From Rhizophagus irregularis (Eukaryota > Glomeromycota > Glomeromycetes > Glomerales > Glomeraceae), in NCBI RefSeq assembly GCF_026210795.1, contig NC_089434.1, positions 5,022,001-5,086,000 on the forward strand: a stretch of 64,000 bases of DNA, written 5' to 3'. The stretch's first letter is position 1, and the number at the start of each line of letters is the position of its first letter. Shown one piece after another: positions 17,362 through 50,534 of this stretch. The notes under the pieces are model-generated. The model saw only the letters and a program-made list of their open reading frames with translations. It had not been told where the DNA came from and did no database searches. Made by a program: the position numbers and the translations under genes.

Positions 17362-17820
17362 TCTTTAATAATTGAAAAATTTGCAAGTCTGTTTTAAAAA
17401 TATTAATTTTAATAATTTGCCAATAATATATCAAAATAATAATAAGACTTGAATGACTATTATTTTTTTTCAAGAGTAGCTTAAAAAATTTGATTATCAA
17501 GTAACTTAAAAGCATAAAGATCAATATTATCATAAATGTTTATCAAAGTATTTATTAAATATTTATAAACAATACTTATTGAATATAAGATGTATTGAAA
17601 AAGTATTTATAAATATTAATAAATAATAAAATATTGCAGTATTTAAGAATTTAAATATTTATTTTTTTATTACTTAATAGATGCAAATTTTTCATACTTA
17701 TTAAATACTCTATTTTAAACTTCATGGTGATATTTTGCTACCATCAAAATATTAATAAAACATAAATAAATTTATTGATAAAAAACAGAAATTTTAATGT
17801 ATTAAATAATGTAGTAATTA
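17362..17820. other. AT-rich spacer
   Basis: No gene or clear repeat was seen. It ends where the terminal repeat of the large DDE element begins. Confidence 0.5.
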
Positions 17821-18324
17821 GGCCGGACAAATTAAATTTTATGTTTCTCATTTTTCAAATCAAATGACTTGACCCGGAAGGCCGGTTTTTTTTTATAATT
17901 TATAGTTTTTTTTATGCAATTTTATTGGTCCAAAACATATTATTAATAATTTTTTGTCAATAAAAATGGGCGTACAAAATACTTATAAAAGATATCAGAT
18001 GTTCTATGATCCTTCCATTTTAATACATAGATGAACGTGGTATTAACGGTCCAAAAATATATAAAAAACCGCAGTTTTCACAGGTTCCGCAGGACCCTGA
18101 AGAATACATATACAACTCAGATCCAGATCCAAAATTTTAATATAACTTTATACACCTAATTTTATTAGAAGCTTTATACAAAATCATCACATAAGTTCAA
18201 ATTTTATTATAAATTATACAATTATAAATCTGAGTTTATATAAAAAAAAAATTTTTAAAGAAAAATTTCAAATAAATTTTATTGAAAATTTTAATAAATA
18301 TTATTAAAAGACTATTTCTATTTG

Positions 18325-18685
18325 TACACTACGTGTGTGAACACGGGTCACATGATTATTATCATTTTCGGTGATCTGCATAAAAAATTTCCTATTTTGG
18401 AAATTTGTGTAACGAATTTTCATTTTTACGGAGAAACAAAATTGCCTTTTTTGGGTTGTGTAACGTTACTCTAATATCCAAAATTGGAAATTATGGTAAT
18501 TTTTGGCTGGAATTATAAAATTTGGCTGAAATTAGTAGACGTGACATATAATATGTGACAAATAAGGGTTTTCCTACTGAAAAAATTCTAAGTCCCTAGA
18601 ATAAATAGTAAAAATGGAAAACTATAGGGGTGTGACATGGGTGACAAATTATTGTCACGTGATCCGTGTTTCGTACACTAGTGTA
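18325..18685. mobile_element. 361-bp MITE-like element
   Basis: The ends are imperfect inverted repeats. The left reads TACACTACGTGTGTGAACAC then GGGTCACATGA. The right, reversed, reads TACACTAGTGTACGAAACAC then GGATCACGTGA. The interior shares several ordered motifs with 14125-14345 in opposite orientation. No certain target duplication was seen. Confidence 0.55.
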
Positions 18686-18885
18686 TATTAAGAAATTATC
18701 TTATTAAAAATTCTAACAAATACTTAAAAATTTTTTTTAAAAAAAATTATTAAAAAATAACTTAAATAAAATTTTTAAACAAAATTGCATGTTAAAATTT
18801 TAAATACCTTATAGATATTGATGCCCAATATGTATAATATAGTAAGTTTTATGCAAAAATTTGGGTGTATATTACAAAATAAAAG

Positions 18886-19207
18886 AAAATACATTTTGTT
18901 ATATATCTCACCACCCAGTGATCGTAAAAAGATGAAACACAGCTCGTTGGATTCGTCTTGACAAGACGAATCGAATGGTAGTAGTTTCGTGTTTCTAGGT
19001 GTGATAGATGTTGAGCTATACCACACATCGGCACTTTGTATTTTCGTCTACTGTGCATTTTTACATTTTATCACATAACTCGGCATCTATCGCGCCTAGA
19101 AATATGAAACTACCACCATTCGACTCGTTGTATTGAGGCGAATCTAATAAGCTGTGTTTCATTTCTCTATGATCACTAGATGCCGAGATATGTAATAAAA
19201 TGTATTT
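18886..19207. repeat. Hairpin element with about 130-bp arms
   Basis: The left arm begins AAAATACATTTTGTTATATA then CTCACCACCCAGTGAT. The right arm, read in reverse, begins AAAATACATTTTATTACATA then CTCGGCATCTAGTGAT. Both continue with ATGAAACACAGCT, TCGAATGGT(A/G)GTAGTTTC and TTTCTAGG. The inside of the hAT-like insertion at 52236-52500 has the same plan, so this is a recurring hairpin module. Confidence 0.7.
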
Positions 19208-20621
19208 TTTTTTTAATTTTGTAAATGAATTTTAAAAAAATTTCTTCATTTTTATTAAAAAAATGTCTTAAAACGAACCTTTAAAAACTTCTTAAACAAA
19301 AAACAATTTCTATTAAAAAATATTTCAAGTGTTTTTTAAAACAAATAAAAAAACTCTTTTTTAAAAAATATCTTAAAAATTTCTTAAACAAAAAATAAAA
19401 AAAAACTAAAAAATTTTAAACGTATATAAAAAAAATTCTAATATCCGTTATACAAAATGAAAATCTTACTTATTGTAAAAATCATTATTGTTATACAAAT
19501 AAAAATCTGACTTTTTGCGTAACTGCTATTTGGTTATACAATTTCAAACATATGACTTATTAAGAAATTACATAGTAAGTTTATACAAAATTGGATCCCA
19601 GTATTATATGTATTCTTCGGGGTCCTGGTTCCGCAGATTCTGCAGTTTTTTTTTAAAAATGGGCGTAATCAACATTTCTATAAAAAAAGGTCAAAAACAA
19701 ATATATGGATGAATGATCCATCTATTTAGTGTTACGGATAAACGTACAATTGAACAATTCTACAATGATTTACCTTTAGGCATTTTATTTGAAGAAAATC
19801 GAGAGTTGGAAGTTAAAGTTTTTTTGGGAGACAATATTCGTGATATCTCTAATGGAGTAGCTTTAAATTGTCCAATTGCTGATACTACCAAGAGTTTTGG
19901 TGAATGTATTGAACTCCGGTTGCAAGATATACCTACTATACAACCGTCAGCTGGAAAAAATGCTTTTAATATTTTATTACAAGAATCAAGTCAGCTTTAT
20001 TTACCAAATATGAAGGAGAATGGTAATGAAAAAGAGTGTATGAAATTTAATTTTGTTAATTATTTTCAAGAAAATAATGCAGGATGGGTTGGAAAGGATA
20101 CTGCTGAAAGTCTTGGACGTGAATTCATTAAACATATAATGGAAGCAATTTGGTATATTGATATGTGTGGTGTTAAAAAATTTAAAGATCGAGGATATAG
20201 CATTCCTACATCACTGAGTATTTTTTTTGAATATGCTAATCCAGCATACAAAAAAAAAAGACCTGATTTTAAAAAAAAAGTATTAAATGGGCATATAAGT
20301 AATTTAATAACTTATAAAGAAGCAAAATGGTTTAACAAATCCTCATTTAATTGGTTTAAAAAAACATTTATTGAGTTTTTAGATTCTTTAATATCATACG
20401 TATTGTATTTAGATAATCAGGCAAGGGTTATGAACGAAAATCATGCTTTGGATAAGCCAGTCCGCTCTATTGCAGGTTTATGAACAACTACAATTTATAA
20501 TGCTAATAAATTTCGCTCAGGGAGATATTATAAAAAAATATGAACCATTGGTTGATGTTTTACAAAAATTGGAAGATTGGGTTCCATTAGATATATTATC
20601 ATATTGTTTAGACAATCCTAC

Positions 20622-20691
20622 GTAAGTAATTGATTTACTAAATAGTTAATAGAAATTTTCAATAAAAATTAATATACAATTAATTTTGTAG
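20622..20691 (+). other. Intron in the DDE-like gene
   Basis: Donor CCTAC|GTAAGT and acceptor TTTTGTAG|C join LDNPT to KRYVYLNGFEKAF in one frame. It is 70 bp long and A/T-rich, typical of this genome. A conserved functional intron shows that the gene was once expressed as a spliced eukaryotic gene. Confidence 0.6.
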
Positions 20692-22308
20692 CAAACGATA
20701 TGTTTATCTTAATGGTTTTGAAAAAGCATTTCCTTTTAAAGTTGGTCATTATTCTTTCAATTTTGGCAATAATTCATTCAATGTTACTTGGGTATGGAAA
20801 GTTAATATATGTGTATCGAGAATCAGAAAGAATGAATGAATCACAAAAGCTTACTTCCGGTCTTGAAGAATTGGTACCACAATATCTTTCCAGGAAACAA
20901 AAATATGCATTTATTAATTCTGCTGAAACCCTTCTTGGCGCAAATACAGTAAAAAAATCAATCCTTCGAAATATCTACAAGACACTTACACAGGATAGTA
21001 CTGCAGCTAATTGTGAAAATGAAGCAGAGATTGATGCACGTGTAGTAAAAGCATTACATTTGGGTGATTCAAACATTATAATTGATTTACGTGAATTAAA
21101 CCTTGGTCGACCAGAAAAATATAATGTTTTTTGGGAATATTGTCAAAAATTTTTAGATGGTGCAGTAAAAAACTCAGTGGATTCTCTATTAGCTGTTGAT
21201 AAATGACGTCATGATACAATTGTTCATTTAGCAAAAGCAATTTCAGTTAAAGTTTTACGTATTCAAGTAGCTGCAATTTGTCCAGATGATACACCAATAC
21301 CTCATGAACAATGGATTCGTCTTCAATTCTGGCCAAAAAACCCCAAAATAATACAAGCCTCCAATATACAGGCCGCTTACAAGTAAAATTTATGGTGCAA
21401 ATTCGCCAACTACAAATTGAGCATGAAGATGCTCATTATGCATCTGCATTATTTAGATATCTTAAAGAACTGGCTGTTATACTTTCAGGCTTTAGCTGGT
21501 TGGTATTTCTTGATGATAAACATCGTTGTAAAGTTGGAGAGCCAGGATTTCCTGTGGCTGCAGTGGATAGAGGCAGATCTGTCTTGGTTTCTCAAGAGGA
21601 AAGTTTTGTGAAGCAGATCATGATTTTACGAAAACTGGTCTTATTCCTAGTGTTACAATGTTATGTGATATTCCATCTGATATGAAAGGTTCATTTTATC
21701 GTGGGCAAGTTAATATTGGGTTAAAAGATCCTATTTTTGAATCAAGTACACCTATGCGTCATGCTGCAGAATTATATGATATTCTTATAAATTCACAACA
21801 AGGACATCACTACTTGTTAGTTTATACAGATGGTGGTAGTGACCATCAATTAAGATTTCTTCAAGTTCAACTTTCATGGATATGTCTATTTTTAGCTTTA
21901 GATTTAGACTATTTTGTAGCAGTTAGAACTCCTCCTGGACATTCCTGAAAGAATCCTGTAGAAAGAATTATGTCCATTTTGAATCTGGGTTTACAATCAG
22001 TAGGATTGATGCGTCAAGAAATGGGACAGGAATTTGAACATTTAATTGAAGGATGTAATACTATGGAAGCAATACGTGAAGCTGCAATAAAGGAACCAAG
22101 ATTAAAGAAAGAGTTGAAGCAAAGCCTACAACCCACAATTGGTTTAGTTAATACAATTTTTTAACGGCAATTACTAAAAGATGAGCCATTTAAAACATTT
22201 GATGCTGCAACGGAACAGGAAATTGACAATTTGTGGGAATCAATTTTACAATTGGATCCTGATTTAAATAAAGATACTACTAGACAATTTAAGCATGTTA
22301 AAAATATG

Positions 22309-22380
22309 GTAAATATTTAATTTATTGACATATTAAAAATTTATAAACATAATTACTAATTTTATTCTTATATTTTACAG
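22309..22380 (+). other. Second intron in the DDE-like gene
   Basis: Donor ATG|GTAAAT and acceptor TATTTTACAG|TCA keep the frame between FKHVKNM and SKFNEFYDHCC. It is 72 bp long. Downstream, Cys-containing motifs (CGNEFCEIC) begin the zinc-binding-like region. Confidence 0.6.
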
Positions 22381-23429
22381 TCAAAATTTAATGAATTTTA
22401 CGATCATTGTTGCTGAAAACGCCACTATTTCTTTGAAATAAAAAAGTGTGGTAATGAGTTTTGCGAAATTTGTCAGCCACTTTCTGGGGATAAACAAATG
22501 TTTGAAAAATTAGCCAATTTTCCTGATCCAGTGCCCGGTAATAAAAATCACTACATGTCATTTAAAGAAATATATGGAAAGGAAACTAATGAAAAGCACC
22601 GACCATCACTCAAAAGCAAATCTAATAATAATACCACTAATTCTAATGATTTACAATTAAAACCAACACAACAATATGTTCGTAATGTGGGTCAATGTGT
22701 TTTGTGTATTAAATGCAATAGACCAAGAGTTTTATATTCTAAATGTAAAGTCAAACAGGAGATGATTCGAAAGTTGCATTCATTTTTAGAGACTGTTGAT
22801 TATAGTTGTGGTGCTACTTTTGTGGATCTTACGGATTTATCTTTTGCTATAAACTCAAAAGCAAGAGAAAATTTGAATACAAATAGGGAAGGTACAAGCA
22901 ATACGGAACAAAATCAAGAAAACGAAATGGTTAGAGATTTGTTTAAAGATATTTTTGTAAATGCAAAGTTGAGTTGTCAACAGGAAATGGAAAGAACTTA
23001 TTACTCTACCAAATGTTTCATGGCAGTATGCTTTAATTGTGGCATTGCTGACATTGAAATTCCAAGTAGCAATGATACCTATCCATACTGTAATGAATGT
23101 GAGATAGGTCCCGGATTTAAGCGAAAACGTGAAAAAGGTTTAAAGTTTGGCGGTGAAGAACATTAAAAGAAAAAAGCCAAAAAAGCTTAGCCAAACGGTA
23201 TATCTATGTCACAAAATTAAGATTAATGCAAATTTATATATAGTAATTACAGTGCAATTTTTGTAATTGATATTTTGCGTATTTGATATTAATATAATAT
23301 AAATATTAACCTGCTTCATAAAATTTTATTAGTATATTGATCACGTGATAAAAATAATAAAATTTTCGAGTTTTCAGATTTGAATCACACGGCCGGTGAT
23401 GAGAAACATGTAATTTTATTTGTCTCGCC

Positions 23430-23965
23430 AATATTACTATTTAAATATTGAGCAATCTGTTAATTATTTAAGCATTATTTATTAAATATCTTGTTTATTA
23501 GATCAAATAATTTCATTAATGATTATTTTGTTGTTCAACATTTTGTTAGCAAATTTTATATTTATAAAAAAATTTTTCTGTTATTTATTTTGTAAATATA
23601 TTTTTAATATAAATATTAAGAAATTATTAGTTTAAGAAAATATTTTTTTTATAAATTTACCATTTACATTTATAAATGGCTTATGTTTTATATCTAATTA
23701 CATTATATTTTTTAAAACATAAATAAATTTATAAAATACTTGTTAGATTTACCAAATTACTAAAAATGGTAATAATTTTAAAATACTACTAAAATATATT
23801 TTAATACATCAAAATATTTTTATTATACTTTTATTATTATTTTGTAATTATATTGTATTTAAATCTATAAAAATAACTTAAAATAATATCACAATAATTT
23901 TTTAATGCTTTTATTTCAAAAATATCTTTAAATATATTTTGATATATTTTAAAATGATAATTATA
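23430..23965. other. AT-rich spacer between two transposons
   Basis: No gene; A/T-rich sequence between the right end of the DDE-like element and the left end of the MULE. Confidence 0.5.
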
Positions 23966-24123: not shown

Positions 24124-26668
24124 ATGTCTGATGAAAATATTGAATTTTCTGAAGAAAATTTGTTACCCTATCCTTCCAATGAAGTTACGAATTCTGATCT
24201 GTTTAGTGGCAAGATTTTTTCATCCTGGGAAGAGTGCGACTCATTTTTTGATGGTTGGTCTAAAAAAAATGGATTCCATATAAAGAAAAATCGTGTATTA
24301 CGTGAAGAAGGCAATATCTGACGTCGAACATATTTATGTGTTCATGGTGGTTCATATGAGTCAAAATCCAAAAAAGATACTTCCACGAAAAAAACCAAAT
24401 GTCCATTTTTAGTCAATGTTTCATGTTCTAAAACCAAAAACCCGAGTTCAAATGTTGTTGTTAATAAGCTTATAAATGAACACAATCATTCTTTAAGTGT
24501 AGAAATGATAACTTTCGAAGAACAAAAGAAATTTACAACTGAAATGATGGAAGACATCAAGTTTCTAACATCTCATTGTAAATTTGGTGCGACAGCTCAA
24601 AGAAAATTCTTGGAAGGAAAGTATCCTTCACAACCAATATATTCTAAAGATTTATACGCAGCTATTCAGAAATTTCGTCCAACTTCTAAATCACTATTAA
24701 ATGATGCTGCTTTGATGTCCAATTGGTTGGACCATCAAAAAGAATGTGATTCACGCTGGGTGATTGTTAGAGGATGGGATGATGATAATACGCTTACCAG
24801 GTTATTATAGATGACCCCTGAACAAGTTGATAATTGGATACAATTTTCGGACTGTGTATTAAATGATGTTACACATAAGACAAACCGCTACGGTATGGCG
24901 TTATCATTATTTGTAGGATTCAATTGTCATCGAAATAATATTCTTCTTGCTCAAGCCCTACTTTCTGATGAAAGTATGGAATCACACCTTTGGGTTTTTC
25001 ATGAAATATTAAAGGCAACAGGAAGGCAACCGTCAGTAATAATGACTGATGCCGACCCTGCAGTTGATTCTGCAATTCGACAAGTTTTTTCACAAACCTA
25101 TCCAATTCATTGTGCATTTCATATGACGCAAAATATTAATAAAAACCTGAGAAAAATTCTTGGAGACTCTTATCCAAAGTTTTTAGATGCATTTTATATA
25201 TGCAGAAATAGCCTTGCAAATGAAACATTTGAAAAACGGTTTGAGAATCTTTTTCAGGATTTTCCCGATGCTAAGCCATATTTGAAAACGCTATATCAAA
25301 CTAAAACTTATTGGGCTCATTGTTTCACAAGTTTTAAGTTTACAGCTGGCATGATTGCAACTTCCCGGGTAGAAGCTGTTAATGCTTGTTTGAAACGATT
25401 ATTGTATAATTCAAACATTTCTTTATGTGATTTAATGACAGAAATACATAGACTTTTAGATATGCAAGATAAAAAAGAGCAATATAACTTCTGGAAACTT
25501 GCTATTCCTTGTATAAGAAACCAAGAAAAGTCTAACTTTCTTTTTAGAAAATTAGATAATTATTTGGAAAAATTTCTTACTCCTATAATGCTTCAAAGAC
25601 AGCGTGATGAAATAAACCAATCAGTTTATTATACTGCTACAAAATTACCTGATAACGATATAGAAACTATTATTGAAGTAAGTTTTTGCTTTAGTTAGGG
25701 TTAGGATTAGGGTGGGTTATTAGGGTTAGGATTAGGGTGAGGTATTAGGGTTAGGATTAGGGTGAGGTATTAGGGTGAGATTAGGGTGAGATTAGGATGA
25801 GATTAGAGTTAGGGTTAGGGTTAGGGTTAGGGAATAGGCTTAGAAAAAACTTTTTATACTAATTTATTTGTTTTAAAAACAGAGTTCCGACGATTGTAAC
25901 ATTGAAATTCGTGATGCATCAGAAGCAGAAGTTCAGCAAATAACATTAAAACAGATTATTGCTTTGGTGGATTTAATTAACATCACTGAAATATGGTCTA
26001 TAATTGTTAACAACACTACAGCCATAAAACATTACATTGTCTTATTGAAGAATAATTCTCATATTTGTTCATGTCTTTCTACTATTCAGCAAGGTGTTGT
26101 TTGTAGGCATTATTTTCAAGTAATGCTTACAACGAGTAATGCTAAATTTCATATTCGCCTTATTCCTTCTCGCTGGTATTATAAAGATCTAGATGGAAGT
26201 AATGAACCTTTTTTTACTGCAGATAAATTTTGCAAAGAAAATGATGGAATTATACAAGAATCACCTGTTCATATTGATTATCTATGTGCATATGGTCAAG
26301 ATAAAGATTTTCTTGAAGAAGGTCTTAATACATATCAGCAAAGGTTGGTTTATGGAGAATTACATGGAATGTACAAGAAAGCTCTTCATAAAGCACTTCA
26401 AAACAAGTCGAGTTCACAACAACTTATTGACCTATTGAAAGAATTTACAGAAGAAACTGATGAACCATCTGAAGATGAAAACTTTAGTGATAAAGAAAAT
26501 CAGGAGCATGTGCTTCACAATCCCAAGAAAAGACGTGGAAAAGGTCGACCATTAGGTACTAAACGGTTCAAATCATCACAAGAAACTAAAAATAAAGAAA
26601 AACATCAAAGACGTTGCAAAAAATGTGGAAATGTTGGGCATTATCAAAAAAATTGTAATAATGTTTAA
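24124..26668 (+). pseudogene. MULE transposase (FAR1-like, MULE, SWIM, zinc knuckle), two in-frame stops
   Basis: ATG 24124 starts a FAR1/WRKY-GCM1-type DNA-binding region (F-SWEECDSFFDGWSKKNGF, then CVHGG, CPF and EHNHS). The MULE catalytic domain shows NDVTHKTNRYGM (first D), IMTDADPAVDSAI (second D, followed by HCAFHMTQNI) and TSRVEAVNACLKR (E). After an intron at 25678-25882 come a SWIM zinc finger (HICSCLSTIQQGVVCRHYFQ, CxC..CxH) and a CCHC knuckle near the stop (CKKCGNVGHYQKNC). Only two lesions are seen: TGA at 24319 and TAG at 24808, both in otherwise open frame, each one transition from a sense codon. It is probably recently inactivated. The coding exons are 24124-25677 and 25883-26668. 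Confidence 0.85.
25678..25882 (+). repeat. Intron filled with telomere-like TTAGGG repeats
   Basis: Donor GAA|GTAAGT and acceptor AAAAACAG|AGT join IETIIE to SSDDCNIEIRD in frame. Between about 25694 and 25842 the intron is a run of TTAGGG, TTAGGATTAGGG and GTGAGATTAGGG variants, ending in four perfect tandem GTTAGG units. The repeat reads as the G-rich strand on +. The splice sites appear unaffected. Confidence 0.85.
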
Positions 26669-41278: not shown

Positions 41279-42106
41279 TTAATAAAAATAAAAGTCATAA
41301 TCAATTGGTAACTGCGGTTGTTCATGTTGTTCACTTGACTGCAGCTGAAATTCATCAACTGGTATATATGATTGCAGGAATTCTTCTTGTTGTGGTTGCA
41401 GTTGGAGAGGATATAATAGTAGATGAGGTTGCGATTGCTGTTGCGGTTGTTGCAGCTGTTGCGGTTGTTGCAGCTGTTGCGGTTGTGATAGCGGTTGCGG
41501 TTGTGGTTGGTCATATAGCTCATAAAATTCATTTGCCTCATATGGCTGAAATTGTAATTGTGGTTGCGTTGAGGATAGTTGTGGTTGGTAAGGTTGGTAA
41601 TATTCATAGGTTTCATAGGTTTGTGGTTGCGTTGAGGATGGTTGTGGTTGGTAAGGTTGGTAATATTCATAGGTTTCATGTAATTGTGGCTGCGTTGAGG
41701 ATGGTTGTGGTTGGTAAGGTTGGTAATATTCATATGTTTGCGTTGTTTGTGGTTGCGTTTGATATGATCGGGGTGAGGATAGTTGTGGTTGGTAATATTC
41801 ATAATATGGCATTTGCGATCTCAATTTAAACCGACGATTTCCTTCGATCGCTAGAATTTTAAAAAATTCTTTTATTTCGTTAGGCTCATTATGCCACATT
41901 CTAACTAATAATATTTTATAATTAATAGCATATGGTCCATCTAATCTAAGTTGTATCATTTTATTACGACGATATAAAGTGTATGGGTTGTTATTATAAA
42001 TATTTTGAAAAAGATCATCAAGGTCGATATTTAAGTCGCAAGGTGGGTTTTCCATAAAATTCAGGAATTTTTGATAATCCGTTAACTTTATTTCCTTTGC
42101 CTTCAT
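41279..42106 (-). CDS. HMG-box (MATA-HMG-like) protein with Gln/Tyr/Pro-rich repeats
   Basis: A 275-aa single-exon frame is intact from ATG 42106 to its stop. Residues about 38-104 form a divergent HMG box: NNNPYTLYRRNKMIQLRLDG, then the MWHNEPNEIKEFFKILA helix with Trp71 and Pro/Tyr at the end. This is closest to the MATA-HMG type that is strongly expanded in arbuscular mycorrhizal fungi (from memory). Such proteins bind DNA in the nucleus, and some act as mating-type regulators. The C-terminus is a low-complexity tail with about four imperfect copies of YEYYQPYQPQPSSTQPQ, then poly Gln-Pro. Upstream on minus are TATATATAAATACGG and a CCAATAATTG reversal around 42215-42245, plus a long A-tract. 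It is the best candidate for a living host gene. A mating role is not shown. Confidence 0.75.
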   Translation of the reverse strand: MKAKEIKLTDYQKFLNFMENPPCDLNIDLDDLFQNIYNNNPYTLYRRNKMIQLRLDGPYAINYKILLVRMWHNEPNEIKEFFKILAIEGNRRFKLRSQMPYYEYYQPQLSSPRSYQTQPQTTQTYEYYQPYQPQPSSTQPQLHETYEYYQPYQPQPSSTQPQTYETYEYYQPYQPQLSSTQPQLQFQPYEANEFYELYDQPQPQPLSQPQQLQQPQQLQQPQQQSQPHLLLYPLQLQPQQEEFLQSYIPVDEFQLQSSEQHEQPQLPIDYDFYFY

Positions 42107-48292: not shown

Positions 48293-48698
48293 TACAGTCG
48301 TCCCCCTCTATAGTCACCCCCTATATAAGAACACCCCCTATTTAGTCATATCATTGTCAAGTCCCGTTTTTTTAAATATTAAAATGCCCCTTTTGTAGTC
48401 ACAAATCGATTATAGTCACTATCACACTAATAGTTAGTCCCGATATAATAATTAACATATGAAAATTTCCCCTTATATAGTCATATCACGTGATTAACAA
48501 TGTATTCGGAAAATATATCGCGCGTTTTGTGCATAAAATGAATTTTCCTTTTAAGTTGATAATCACCACATGTTTCGAACTTTTTCTTTACAATTTTTAT
48601 TTGAAAATGTTTTATTTTTCGATTTCAAACTTTTTTCATTACATAAATTCATCCTTTTACAAAAACTATCTTTTTCACTTTTTTTTATATCTAATATA

Positions 48699-50534
48699 AT
48701 GCCACCTATACGTTTACAAAAAGCAAGGAGAATTCGTTCTGCCATTAGTAATGAAATAAAAAAAGAAATATGTGAATATATAATGGCAAATAGTAATGTG
48801 AAACAGGAAGAAGTTGCACTTTACTTTAATACAAAATATAATGAATTAAACATTGATAGATCAACTGTATCAAAAATATGGCAAAATCGTGAAAAGTGGA
48901 TGGCAGTTCTTTCAACTTCACAGACTGCATGTACATTTCGTCATCGCTCAGTTCAGTATCCAGAACTTGATAAGGCCTTGCAAATTTGGACAGCACAAGC
49001 AGTGACCGCTGGACTTCCTTTAACTGATATGATTTTACAACAAAAAGGAATAGAACTTGCACAAATGTTAAATATTGGAGAAAATCAAATAAAATTTACT
49101 AATGGTTGGGTGTACAGATTCAAAAAACGGAATGGACTTCAAAGAGTTAAGTTTTCAGGTGAGGCTAATAGTGCCCCTATAGAAACTCTTCCAGAAGAAC
49201 GTGTACGTCTTCGTGCACTTTTAGCTAAGTATGACAAGGAAGATATTTATAATGCAGATGAAACTGGGCTTTTTTTCCGAATGGAGCCAAACCAAACATT
49301 GAGTACTGGTGCAGTTGCGGGGCGTAAAATGGTAATTTTTATTGTAATAATTTTTCGTTAAAATAACTCTTTAAATGTTTTTTATTTTTCTGTAATCACT
49401 TTTTGACAAAATAATTATTTTCTGTAGGACAAAAGCCGAGTTTCTGTTTTATTTTGTGCTAATGCTACAGGATCTCATAAAATTCGTCCTTTGGTAATTG
49501 GAAAATCATTAAATCCCCGATGTTTTAAAAATCTCAACAAGTCAACTCTTCCAGTCATTTATCGAGCCAATTCAAAAGCATGGATGAGATCTGATATTTT
49601 CATTGAATGGCTTAAACACCTTGACTATTACTTTCGCACAATGGATAGAAGAGTTTTACTTCTTATTGATAATGCAGGATCCCACTTTAATCCAAAAAGA
49701 TTTAAAAAAAATGATGATATGGATGATGAAGAAATTTCAGAATCTGATGACGAACAAGAATCTAAAAAACAAAAGAAAAAAGAAAAACCTGCTGTTGATC
49801 TTACTAATATTGAGCTTGTTTATCTTCCACCAAATACAACCGCTCATCTCCAACCTATGGATGCAGGTATTATCCATAGTTTTAAAGCTAAATATAAACA
49901 AGAATTTTGTAGACATTTAATTCGGCAGTTTGATTCTGGAGTTGATCATGTTAAGTAAGTTTAAAAAATTAACATTATTTTTCTATTAATGTTATTAATT
50001 TATTATTTTATTTAGAAATAAGTTAAACATTAAGGAGGCAATTGATTATATTGCTGAATCATGGAATAATGTCACTCCAACAACAATTCAAAATTGTTGG
50101 ATCAAAACAGGTATACTTCCATCTTGTGATGATGATAATACGGATGAAGAAGATTTAGATGATGATGAACTTGAAAATCTTCTTATTAATTTGCCGGAAG
50201 AAACTGCTGATGTATTGGAATATTTTCAGTTGCTTGATCGTGAAATTCCAACTGAAGAGCACCTTACTGAAGAGCAAATTATTGATATGGTGCGAAATGA
50301 AGAAAATCAAGTAGAAGAAAGTGAAGATGATGACGAAAATGAAGAAATTCCTCTGATATCAGTGAAAAAAGCAATTAATGGGTTGGAAACTTTTGTTAAT
50401 TATTTTGAACAACAAGAAGATTCGAGTTTAATATTGGTGATTTGCGTATTTTTAGAAAATACTTACGAGTAATTAGAGTTAGAGAGATCAATGCAAAAAA
50501 GCAAAGTACACTTGATGGTTTTTTTGATAGGTAA
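48699..50534 (+). CDS. pogo-type DDE transposase, three exons, frameshift near the end
   Basis: The start ATG (48699) opens an HTH_psq-like region (EIKKEICEYIMANSNVKQEE) and a CENP-B-type HTH (LDKALQIWTAQAVTAGLPLT ... TNGWVYRFKKRNGLQRVKF). The catalytic triad is in YNADETGLFF, LLLIDNAGSHF and TTAHLQPMDAGII (D, D, D). An acidic/Lys stretch lies between the last two. Introns are 49332-49427 (ATG|GTAATT ... TGTAG|GAC) and 49955-50015 (AA|GTAAGT ... TTTAG|A). As read, exon 3 ends at 50472 (538 aa in all). The next frame continues a typical tail to 50534, so one base was lost near 50420. The lost tail ends QSTLDGFFDR, a PCNA-binding (PIP) type motif. The core looks intact. Confidence 0.9.
49332..49427 (+). 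other. Intron 1 of the pogo transposase
   Basis: The 96-bp A/T-rich GT-AG intron joins GRKM to DKSRVSVLFCANATG, the usual contiguous sequence of DDE_1 transposases. Confidence 0.85.
49955..50015 (+). other. Intron 2 of the pogo transposase
   Basis: The 61-bp GT-AG intron joins VDHVK to NKLNIKEAIDYIAESWNNVT in frame. The W and N-V-T block is typical of the family. Confidence 0.85.

What the first reader, a model, noticed from the sequence alone, without database searches (positions are those of the whole stretch)
17821..23429. Transposon with an unnamed DDE-like transposase and Cys-rich tail
Seen: a gene with two introns, many lesions, and motifs LDDKHRCKVGEPGFP, YTDGGSDH and NPVERIMS in the order and spacing of a D-D-E catalytic core (about 43 residues between the second D and E), then CxxC-rich sequence. 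The whole lies between 26/31-bp inverted ends. Known: NPIE/NPVE after D is typical of Tc1-like enzymes, but the rest fits no family I can name. Inference: a separate lineage of eukaryotic cut-and-paste transposon, perhaps also present in invertebrates.
Basis: partly seen in the sequence, partly recalled or inferred. Interest (0 to 1): 0.85.

Follow-up and report, generated by a model that had tools for sequence, protein, structure and literature searches.

The report
Decayed Zator/ISAzo13-type fungal DNA transposon
The stretch is a broken copy of a cut-and-paste jumping gene whose enzyme is related to a bacterial insertion-sequence family (ISAzo13, the group tied to the transposon type called Zator); the same genome holds many relatives, some nearly identical to each other, and many short copies with the same kind of ends.

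Summary
In detail: D-D-E motifs with 43 residues between the second D and E, two introns, many lesions, a Cys-rich tail and 26/31-bp inverted ends. A copy about 97% identical on another contig ends at the same place in unrelated flanks, so the ends are real. It is a transposon: 14 of 19 relatives examined carry exact 3-bp target duplications (mostly TAA/TTA), 18 of 20 fetched short copies do too, and uninterrupted target sites exist elsewhere. It is not wholly nameless. Profile comparison links its catalytic domain to bacterial ISAzo13 transposases (score 58.1; maximum 24.8 in 100 shuffles); a distant sister lineage in the same genome matches the ISAzo13 model directly (E 2.8e-9). ISAzo13 relatedness and 3-bp duplications are how Zator is described in print. 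A cyanobacterial ISAzo13 protein folds like the Mos1 catalytic domain. The window copy is dead; relatives 99% alike indicate recent movement. New here: two deeply split lineages in a genome that fits Rhizophagus irregularis, with long extra N-terminal and Cys-rich C-terminal parts. No Zator sequence was at hand, so whether they lie inside or beside Zator stays open.

The parts
17821..17851 (+). left terminal inverted repeat (GGCCGG...)
   Evidence: I6, 84%; match of the C26 copy starts at 17817
23399..23429 (-). right terminal inverted repeat (ends ...CTCGCC)
   Evidence: match of the C26 copy ends at 23429
19713..23166 (+). degenerate transposase gene in reading pieces; exact start codon not established
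   Evidence: pieces match relatives in order
20622..20691 (+). intron 1 (GT...AG, 70 bp)
   Evidence: sequence; open frames of L022 and L023 run through the corresponding place
22309..22380 (+). intron 2 (GT...AG, 72 bp)
   Evidence: sequence; L023 and L027 read through without it
21512..21514 (+). codon of catalytic D1 (DxK motif of ISAzo13)
21829..21831 (+). codon of catalytic D2 (TDGG)
21961..21963 (+). codon of catalytic E (NPVER)
22381..23166 (+). Cys-rich C-terminal tail; sub-threshold CW-type zinc-finger similarity in two relatives (L025, L027)
18092..19627 (.). nested 1,536-bp insertion with its own inverted ends, flanked by direct repeats GTTCCGCA; absent from the C26 copy
   Evidence: (I3)
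17818..17820 (.). left flank TTA, where relatives have the target duplication; right flank 23430-23432 is AAT, so no duplication here

Best explanation
A dead copy of a cut-and-paste DNA transposon of the ISAzo13/TP36-Zator group. Relatives with long open frames encode a large transposase: an N-terminal part of unknown fold, a DDE domain expected to be RNase H-like (D1 in DDKHR, D2 in TDGGPDH, 43 residues, E in NPVER) and a Cys-rich tail. It most likely binds the GGC-starting inverted ends, cuts the element out with its three acidic residues and metal ions, and joins it to a 3-bp staggered cut at TWA, which repair turns into TAA/TTA duplications. This enzyme or a close relative moves short copies in trans. 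Shown by sequence: ends, duplications, empty sites, near-identical copies at different places, short copies with the same ends. Inferred: catalysis, end binding, movement in trans, the role of tail and N-terminal part as DNA-binding or assembly domains.
For: Own-genome search: 117 matches at E<=1e-3, some of them two pieces of one copy. Of 19 relatives examined for ends, 14 have exact 3-bp duplications: 13 (all TAA or TTA; nine of the window's subgroup, four of the distant lineage) and the C26 copy (TTT). Pairs about 99% identical (L025/L026, L032/L033, L019/L020, L023/L027) whose match stops within a few bases of the element ends, apart from a short separate match in the flanks of L019/L020. 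Empty sites: joined flanks of L033 uninterrupted at 40 of 40 scored places; 8 of 8 fetched ones have a single TTA at both the L033 and the L028 target; joined flanks of L030 uninterrupted at 40 of 40 scored places. End pattern of one subgroup: 92+85 hits, 0 with the reversed pattern; 18 of 20 fetched short copies have exact TAA/TTA duplications against 0-3 of 20 at 12 other offsets, and the one compared (L121) is 92-94% identical at its ends to coding copy L023. Family link: observed 58.1 and 72.6 against shuffle maxima 24.8 and 26.1. Fold of the ISAzo13 relative: RNase H order with D205, D291, E334; best solved match Mos1 catalytic domain, Z 11.8, 2.8 A over 161 residues.
Against: No Pfam or NCBIfam ISAzo13 model reaches its curated cut-off for any member. 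Of 7 members of the window's subgroup whose NCBIfam hits were shown singly, 2 match the ISAzo13 model, weakly (L019 E 0.017; L025 E 0.08), and 5 do not. The distant-lineage member L032 does not match it either. The window copy has no target duplication; of the other relatives examined, L021 and L027 have one mismatch, C28 and L031 need an end difference to be allowed, L034 showed no ends in the stretch fetched. TWA duplications and G-rich ends also occur in PIF/Harbinger (recalled). The fold was predicted for a bacterial relative only, and its whole-chain Foldseek overlap with Mos1 is loose (TM 0.29).
Confidence: 0.9

Rival explanations
1. It belongs to PIF/Harbinger (IS5-like), which also makes 3-bp TWA duplications and has G-rich ends (recalled).
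For: Duplications TAA/TTA and ends starting GGC or GGG.
Against: No Harbinger or IS5 model is among the 22 Pfam families matched at E<=1 by the 17 members scanned, while 4 of 17 match PF07592; D2/E motifs align with ISAzo13. No direct profile-profile comparison with Harbinger was made.
Confidence: 0.04
2. It is a Tc1/mariner-type (IS630) element, as NPVE and the TA next to the ends of this copy suggest.
For: NPVE motif; outer TAGTAAT/ATTACTA in the window flanks; ISAzo13 fold closest to Mos1.
Against: The window's outer inverted letters are absent from the C26 copy; duplications are 3 bp TWA, with single TTA or TAA in empty sites; no Tc1 or IS630 model among the hits.
Confidence: 0.03
3. A host gene family with chance inverted repeats, or a domesticated transposase.
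For: Long open frames in some members (up to 756 aa).
Against: Copies lie with their ends in different flanks, with duplications and empty sites; short copies share the ends.
Confidence: 0.01

Closest known systems
ISAzo13 family (bacterial insertion sequences; PF07592, NF033519)
   Same: Motif order DxK...DHDF...D(G/N)G...PP..S..N.(V/I)E; 42 residues between D2 and E in the cyanobacterial set and 43 in the fungal ones; 3-bp duplications according to PMC10045372 (passage)
   Different: Fungal proteins have long N-terminal and Cys-rich C-terminal additions, introns in some copies, and lie on their own side of a branch (support 100/98)
Zator superfamily (eukaryotes)
   Same: Described as related to ISAzo13/TP36 (PMC10045372, PMC5718144, PMC7386202, passages), with 3-bp duplications (PMC10045372)
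   Different: No Zator sequence was available, so sequence membership is untested; Zator is listed under animals only in Table 3 of PMC4438587 (2015, passage)
Tc1/mariner (Mos1)
   Same: RNase H fold of the ISAzo13 relative is closest to the Mos1 catalytic domain; NPVE-like motif
   Different: TA duplication, different motif set, no profile match
PIF/Harbinger
   Same: 3-bp TWA target, G-rich ends (recalled)
   Different: no model matched

Membership tests
ISAzo13-like DDE transposases | Sequence similarity over the catalytic domain with D, D, E aligned | tested here: met
   hhalign A2 vs A4 58.1 and A3 vs A4 72.6, shuffle maxima 24.8 and 26.1; NF033519 E 2.8e-9 for L030, 4.4e-6 for L031
ISAzo13-like DDE transposases | Score above the curated cut-off of PF07592 or NF033519 | tested here: not met
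   best 22.5 bits against 26.9 (PF07592) and 36.5 against 200 (NF033519); own genome: no match over the cut-off. It is related to the bacterial family, not a member as curated
ISAzo13-like DDE transposases | RNase H-like fold | tested here: inconclusive
   seen by prediction for cyanobacterial ISAzo13 L060; the fungal protein itself was not folded
Zator | 3-bp target site duplication | tested here: met
   14 of 19 relatives examined, 18 of 20 short copies, empty sites; the window copy itself has none
Zator | Transposase related to bacterial ISAzo13/TP36 (PF07592) | tested here: met
Zator | Clusters with named Zator transposases in a tree | not testable with these tools
   no Zator sequences held; the founding paper is not held. 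A 2024 survey of R. irregularis that used a Zator profile names no Zator among its new finds in the text seen (PMC11075540)
PIF/Harbinger | Similarity to Harbinger or IS5 transposase models | tested here: not met
   no such model among hits at E<=1 for 17 members
Tc1/mariner | TA target duplication | tested here: not met
   3-bp TWA duplications, single TTA or TAA in empty sites

The most novel reading that the evidence does not exclude
The two lineages in this genome are not Zator but one or two further eukaryotic superfamilies derived from ISAzo13-type insertion sequences, marked by TWA targeting and an added Cys-rich tail, perhaps with a shared motif (HYFFEIKKC..C..C.P.R). Their mutual distance in the tree is as large as that between the two bacterial ISAzo13 groups, and a survey that ran a Zator profile on this species names no Zator among its new finds.
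Probability: 0.3. Interest if true: 0.6.

Novelty: new variant of a known kind. Interest (0 to 1): 0.4.

Why it matters
About two thirds of the transposable elements of Rhizophagus irregularis are described as unclassified (PMC11075540, abstract, before that paper's own curation). This family, with 117 protein matches and a set of short copies that still carry clean duplications, may sit among them (inference). It would tie ISAzo13-derived transposons, listed under animals only in one 2015 survey, to a fungal genome, and names a likely driver for a class of short mobile repeats. Whether other fungi were already known to hold Zator I could not check: a 2017 fungal survey that made a Zator profile was not held.

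Tried and rejected
Tc1-like reading of the flanking TA and the outer TAGTAAT/ATTACTA: rejected, since the C26 copy lacks these letters and relatives duplicate TWA. Pfam and NCBIfam scans of six of the window's own broken pieces: no DDE hit; ISAzo13 appeared only when relatives were scanned. PDB sequence profile search: three ribosomal L19 chance hits. Viral contigs: 24 and 32 stretches matched a pattern, none encoded a relative. Plasmid tblastn: no match for L025; one weak Calothrix transposase (E 0.5) for L030, which then led to ISAzo13 sequences. Tails of the two fungal lineages compared: 23 aligned residues, hhalign probability 6%, score 25.9 against a maximum of 22.6 in 100 shuffles: suggestive only. 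The tail of the window matched SGS (E 0.0008, below cut-off) and that of L027 and L025 zf-CW (E 0.00057 and 0.0038, below cut-off): not taken as identification. Literature: no paper listed or opened was seen to report Zator or ISAzo13-like transposons in R. irregularis; the listings were capped (for example 20 of 138) and the library is open-licence only; the founding Zator paper and the 2017 fungal survey were not held. So absence in print is not shown.

The fold of the fungal protein was not predicted: the rule of structure prediction names the window and loci of certain searches, the window's core is split over frames, and loci of the genome search are not among those named, so I did not submit them.
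Full report
What is there. The window is contig 6, 5022001-5086000, of a genome of 146,748,485 bases in 32 contigs. At 17821-23429 lies a degenerate gene on the + strand between inverted ends of 31 nt, 26 matching. The reading pieces, from 19713 to 23166, match relatives in order: N-terminal part, middle, D1, D2, E, Cys-rich tail. The gene is broken by about four frame changes and at least four stops. A nested 1,536-bp insertion (18092-19627) accounts for much of the length: without it the element is about 4.1 kb, inside the 3.7-5.9 kb range of its mapped relatives.

Are the ends real? A copy on contig 26, 96-98% identical over its matched pieces, runs from 17817 to 23429 and lies in different flanks. 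From the coordinates of its pieces that copy is itself interrupted by about 4.4 and 1.3 kb, which is why its right end lies some 7 kb from its core. A third, more diverged copy on contig 28 has similar ends.

Is it mobile? The protein search gave 117 matches in the genome, some of them two pieces of one copy. Of 15 coding copies of the window's subgroup examined (window, C26, C28, L019-L028, L034, L035), 10 have an exact 3-bp duplication: five TAA (L019, L020, L022, L025, L028), four TTA (L023, L024, L026, L035), one TTT (C26). C28 has TTA on both sides only if its outermost end base is counted as changed. L021 (TAT/TAA) and L027 (TAA/CAA) have one mismatch, L034 showed no ends in the fetched stretch, and the window copy has none (TTA/AAT). 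Of 5 copies of a distant lineage, 4 are exact (L029 TTA, L030 TAA, L032 TAA, L033 TTA), and L031 shows TTA on both sides if a one-base length difference at the tip is allowed. The table holds only the 13 copies with clear ends. Pairs of copies about 99% identical stop matching within a few bases of the element ends; L019/L020 share one further short match in their flanks. The joined flanks of L033 are found uninterrupted at 40 of 40 scored places (88 candidates); 8 of 8 fetched ones have a single TTA there, and also a single TTA at the site where L028 inserted in another copy of the same host repeat. The joined flanks of L030 are found at 40 of 40 scored places (408 candidates); of four fetched loci L056, L058 and L059 show the single TAA with unchanged neighbours, L057 shows variants, and L058 also has a second copy with TAG. 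So insertion duplicates three bases, TWA preferred.

Short copies. An end pattern of one subgroup occurs 92 times forward and 85 times reverse with at most two mismatches, and not at all when read backwards. Among the places listed (the list is cut) I counted by eye 31 inverted pairs under 500 bp apart, most spanning about 307 bp. I fetched 20 of these 31: 18 have exact duplications (10 TAA, 8 TTA), the other two one mismatch; at 12 other offsets 0-3 of 20 match. One of them, L121, is 92% identical over 121 bp and 94% over 100 bp to the two ends of coding copy L023. They look like non-autonomous copies moved in trans by a transposase of this family; that step is inferred. The window's own subgroup is small: its end pattern with up to three mismatches gives 25 places, against 1 for the reversed pattern, and most of the 25 are three-mismatch hits that I did not follow.

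What family? Six pieces of the window itself match no DDE model. An alignment of 17 open frames from the genome shows D267-D268, D373 and E417 with 43 residues between the last two, and a shared DHDF block. Of the 17, 4 match PF07592 (DDE_Tnp_ISAZ013; best E 6.6e-5) and 6 match NF033519 (ISAzo13 transposase; best E 2.8e-9), at E<=1; none of the scores shown reaches the curated cut-off. The strongest are of the distant lineage (L030, L031), though its L032 does not match; of 7 members of the window's subgroup shown singly, L019 (E 0.017) and L025 (E 0.08) match weakly and 5 do not. Searching the own genome with NF033519 gives 5 places, best E 5.1e-6, none over the cut-off. I therefore collected bacterial ISAzo13 proteins, partly annotated as such, from plasmid records and 61 loci from genomes, 19 of which were aligned. 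Profile-profile comparison gives score 58.1 for the window's subgroup and 72.6 for the distant lineage, against maxima of 24.8 and 26.1 in 100 column shuffles and about 15 for reversed alignments. The three acidic residues and the DHDF and NPVE blocks align. The two fungal lineages match each other with hhalign probability 99.6, E 1.2e-23. A tree of 31 catalytic domains puts both fungal lineages on one side of a branch with support 100/98; the distance between them is about as large as that between the two bacterial groups. For this tree I gave 10 of 12 near and 4 of 5 far rows of A1, 5 of 8 rows of A4 and 12 of 19 of A6, leaving out near-duplicates and some others.

Fold. A cyanobacterial ISAzo13 protein (L060, alignment of 19, mean pLDDT 76.6, pTM 0.56) has the RNase H order of strands and helices with D205 and D291 at strand ends and E334 in the following helix. 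Its best solved matches are Mos1 mariner transposases: Foldseek E 5.9e-6 over the whole chain with a low TM-score (0.29), and VIA-align Z 11.8, rmsd 2.8 over 161 residues for the Mos1 catalytic domain; Metnase and retroviral integrases follow. The fungal protein was not folded, so its fold is inferred through the profile link.

Zator. Published text describes Zator as the eukaryotic counterpart of ISAzo13 or TP36 (PMC10045372, PMC5718144, PMC7386202) and both as making 3-bp duplications (PMC10045372); I read passages only. Both described features are met here. But no Zator sequence was held, so sequence membership is untested. A 2015 survey lists Zator under animals only (PMC4438587, passages); bivalves hold it (PMC10294476, passages). 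One genome paper used a Zator profile from a 2017 fungal survey and found no multiple well-supported hits in Marasmius (PMC8290104, passage); what that survey found in other fungi I could not see. A 2024 curation of R. [quoted passage not shown] its figures and supplements were not seen. The family may have been missed, placed elsewhere, or may score below a Zator profile because it is a separate lineage.

What is new. Relative to ISAzo13, the fungal proteins of the window's subgroup carry an N-terminal part of some 300 residues and a tail of about 250 residues rich in CxxC, with sub-threshold CW-type zinc-finger similarity in two relatives. A short motif of the tail is perhaps shared with the distant lineage. 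Some members look recent: L032 and L033 are 3,090-bp elements, 99.3% identical, each with a single open frame of 756 codons and about 27-bp perfect ends. The window copy is a fossil of this family.

Verdict. I call it a new variant of a known kind: an ISAzo13/Zator-type transposon lineage with many copies and signs of recent movement in this fungal genome. Interest 0.4; if it proves to be a superfamily apart from Zator, 0.6.

Noticed in passing
window 18092-19627: Nested 1,536-bp insertion with inverted ends (CAGGACCC.GAAGAATACATAT) and internal palindromes, flanked by direct repeats GTTCCGCA. At this site the C26 copy has GTTCCGCA-A-GTTCCGCA, which could be an excision footprint of the same element.
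   Followed up: partly
L028 (G000:C31:1858500-1865500): The host repeat into which L028 inserted carries TTA-AATG-TTA where 8 of 8 fetched copies have a single TTA, at the very site that L033 occupies in another copy: a possible excision footprint of this transposon family.
   Followed up: partly
window 24811-26668: MULE transposase gene piece (PF10551 E 1e-20, 24811-25698) and, further on, a frame with a sub-threshold zinc knuckle (25964-26668); a telomere-like tandem repeat (TTAGGGTGAGGA units, 25694-25832) lies between them.
   Followed up: no
window 48570-49361: Frame with a Tc5-type transposase DNA-binding domain (HTH_Tnp_Tc5 E 7.8e-15).
   Followed up: no
L029-L033: Sister lineage: elements of about 2.9-3.5 kb with ends starting GGGG or GGGA (L031: GGC/GGG) of about 26-27 bp; L030, L032, L033 have one long open frame; L029 has sub-threshold C2H2 and AT-hook similarity near its C-terminus.
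   Followed up: partly
window 41279-42106 (-): Open frame of 275 aa rich in Pro, Gln and Tyr repeats, no Pfam match at E<=0.05.
   Followed up: no
L060-L113: In 36 of the 43 bacterial ISAzo13 loci where a frame with the catalytic motifs was found, that frame is under 300 codons, in line with the split transposase CDS pairs of Calothrix and Fischerella plasmids; some are cut by locus ends.
   Followed up: no
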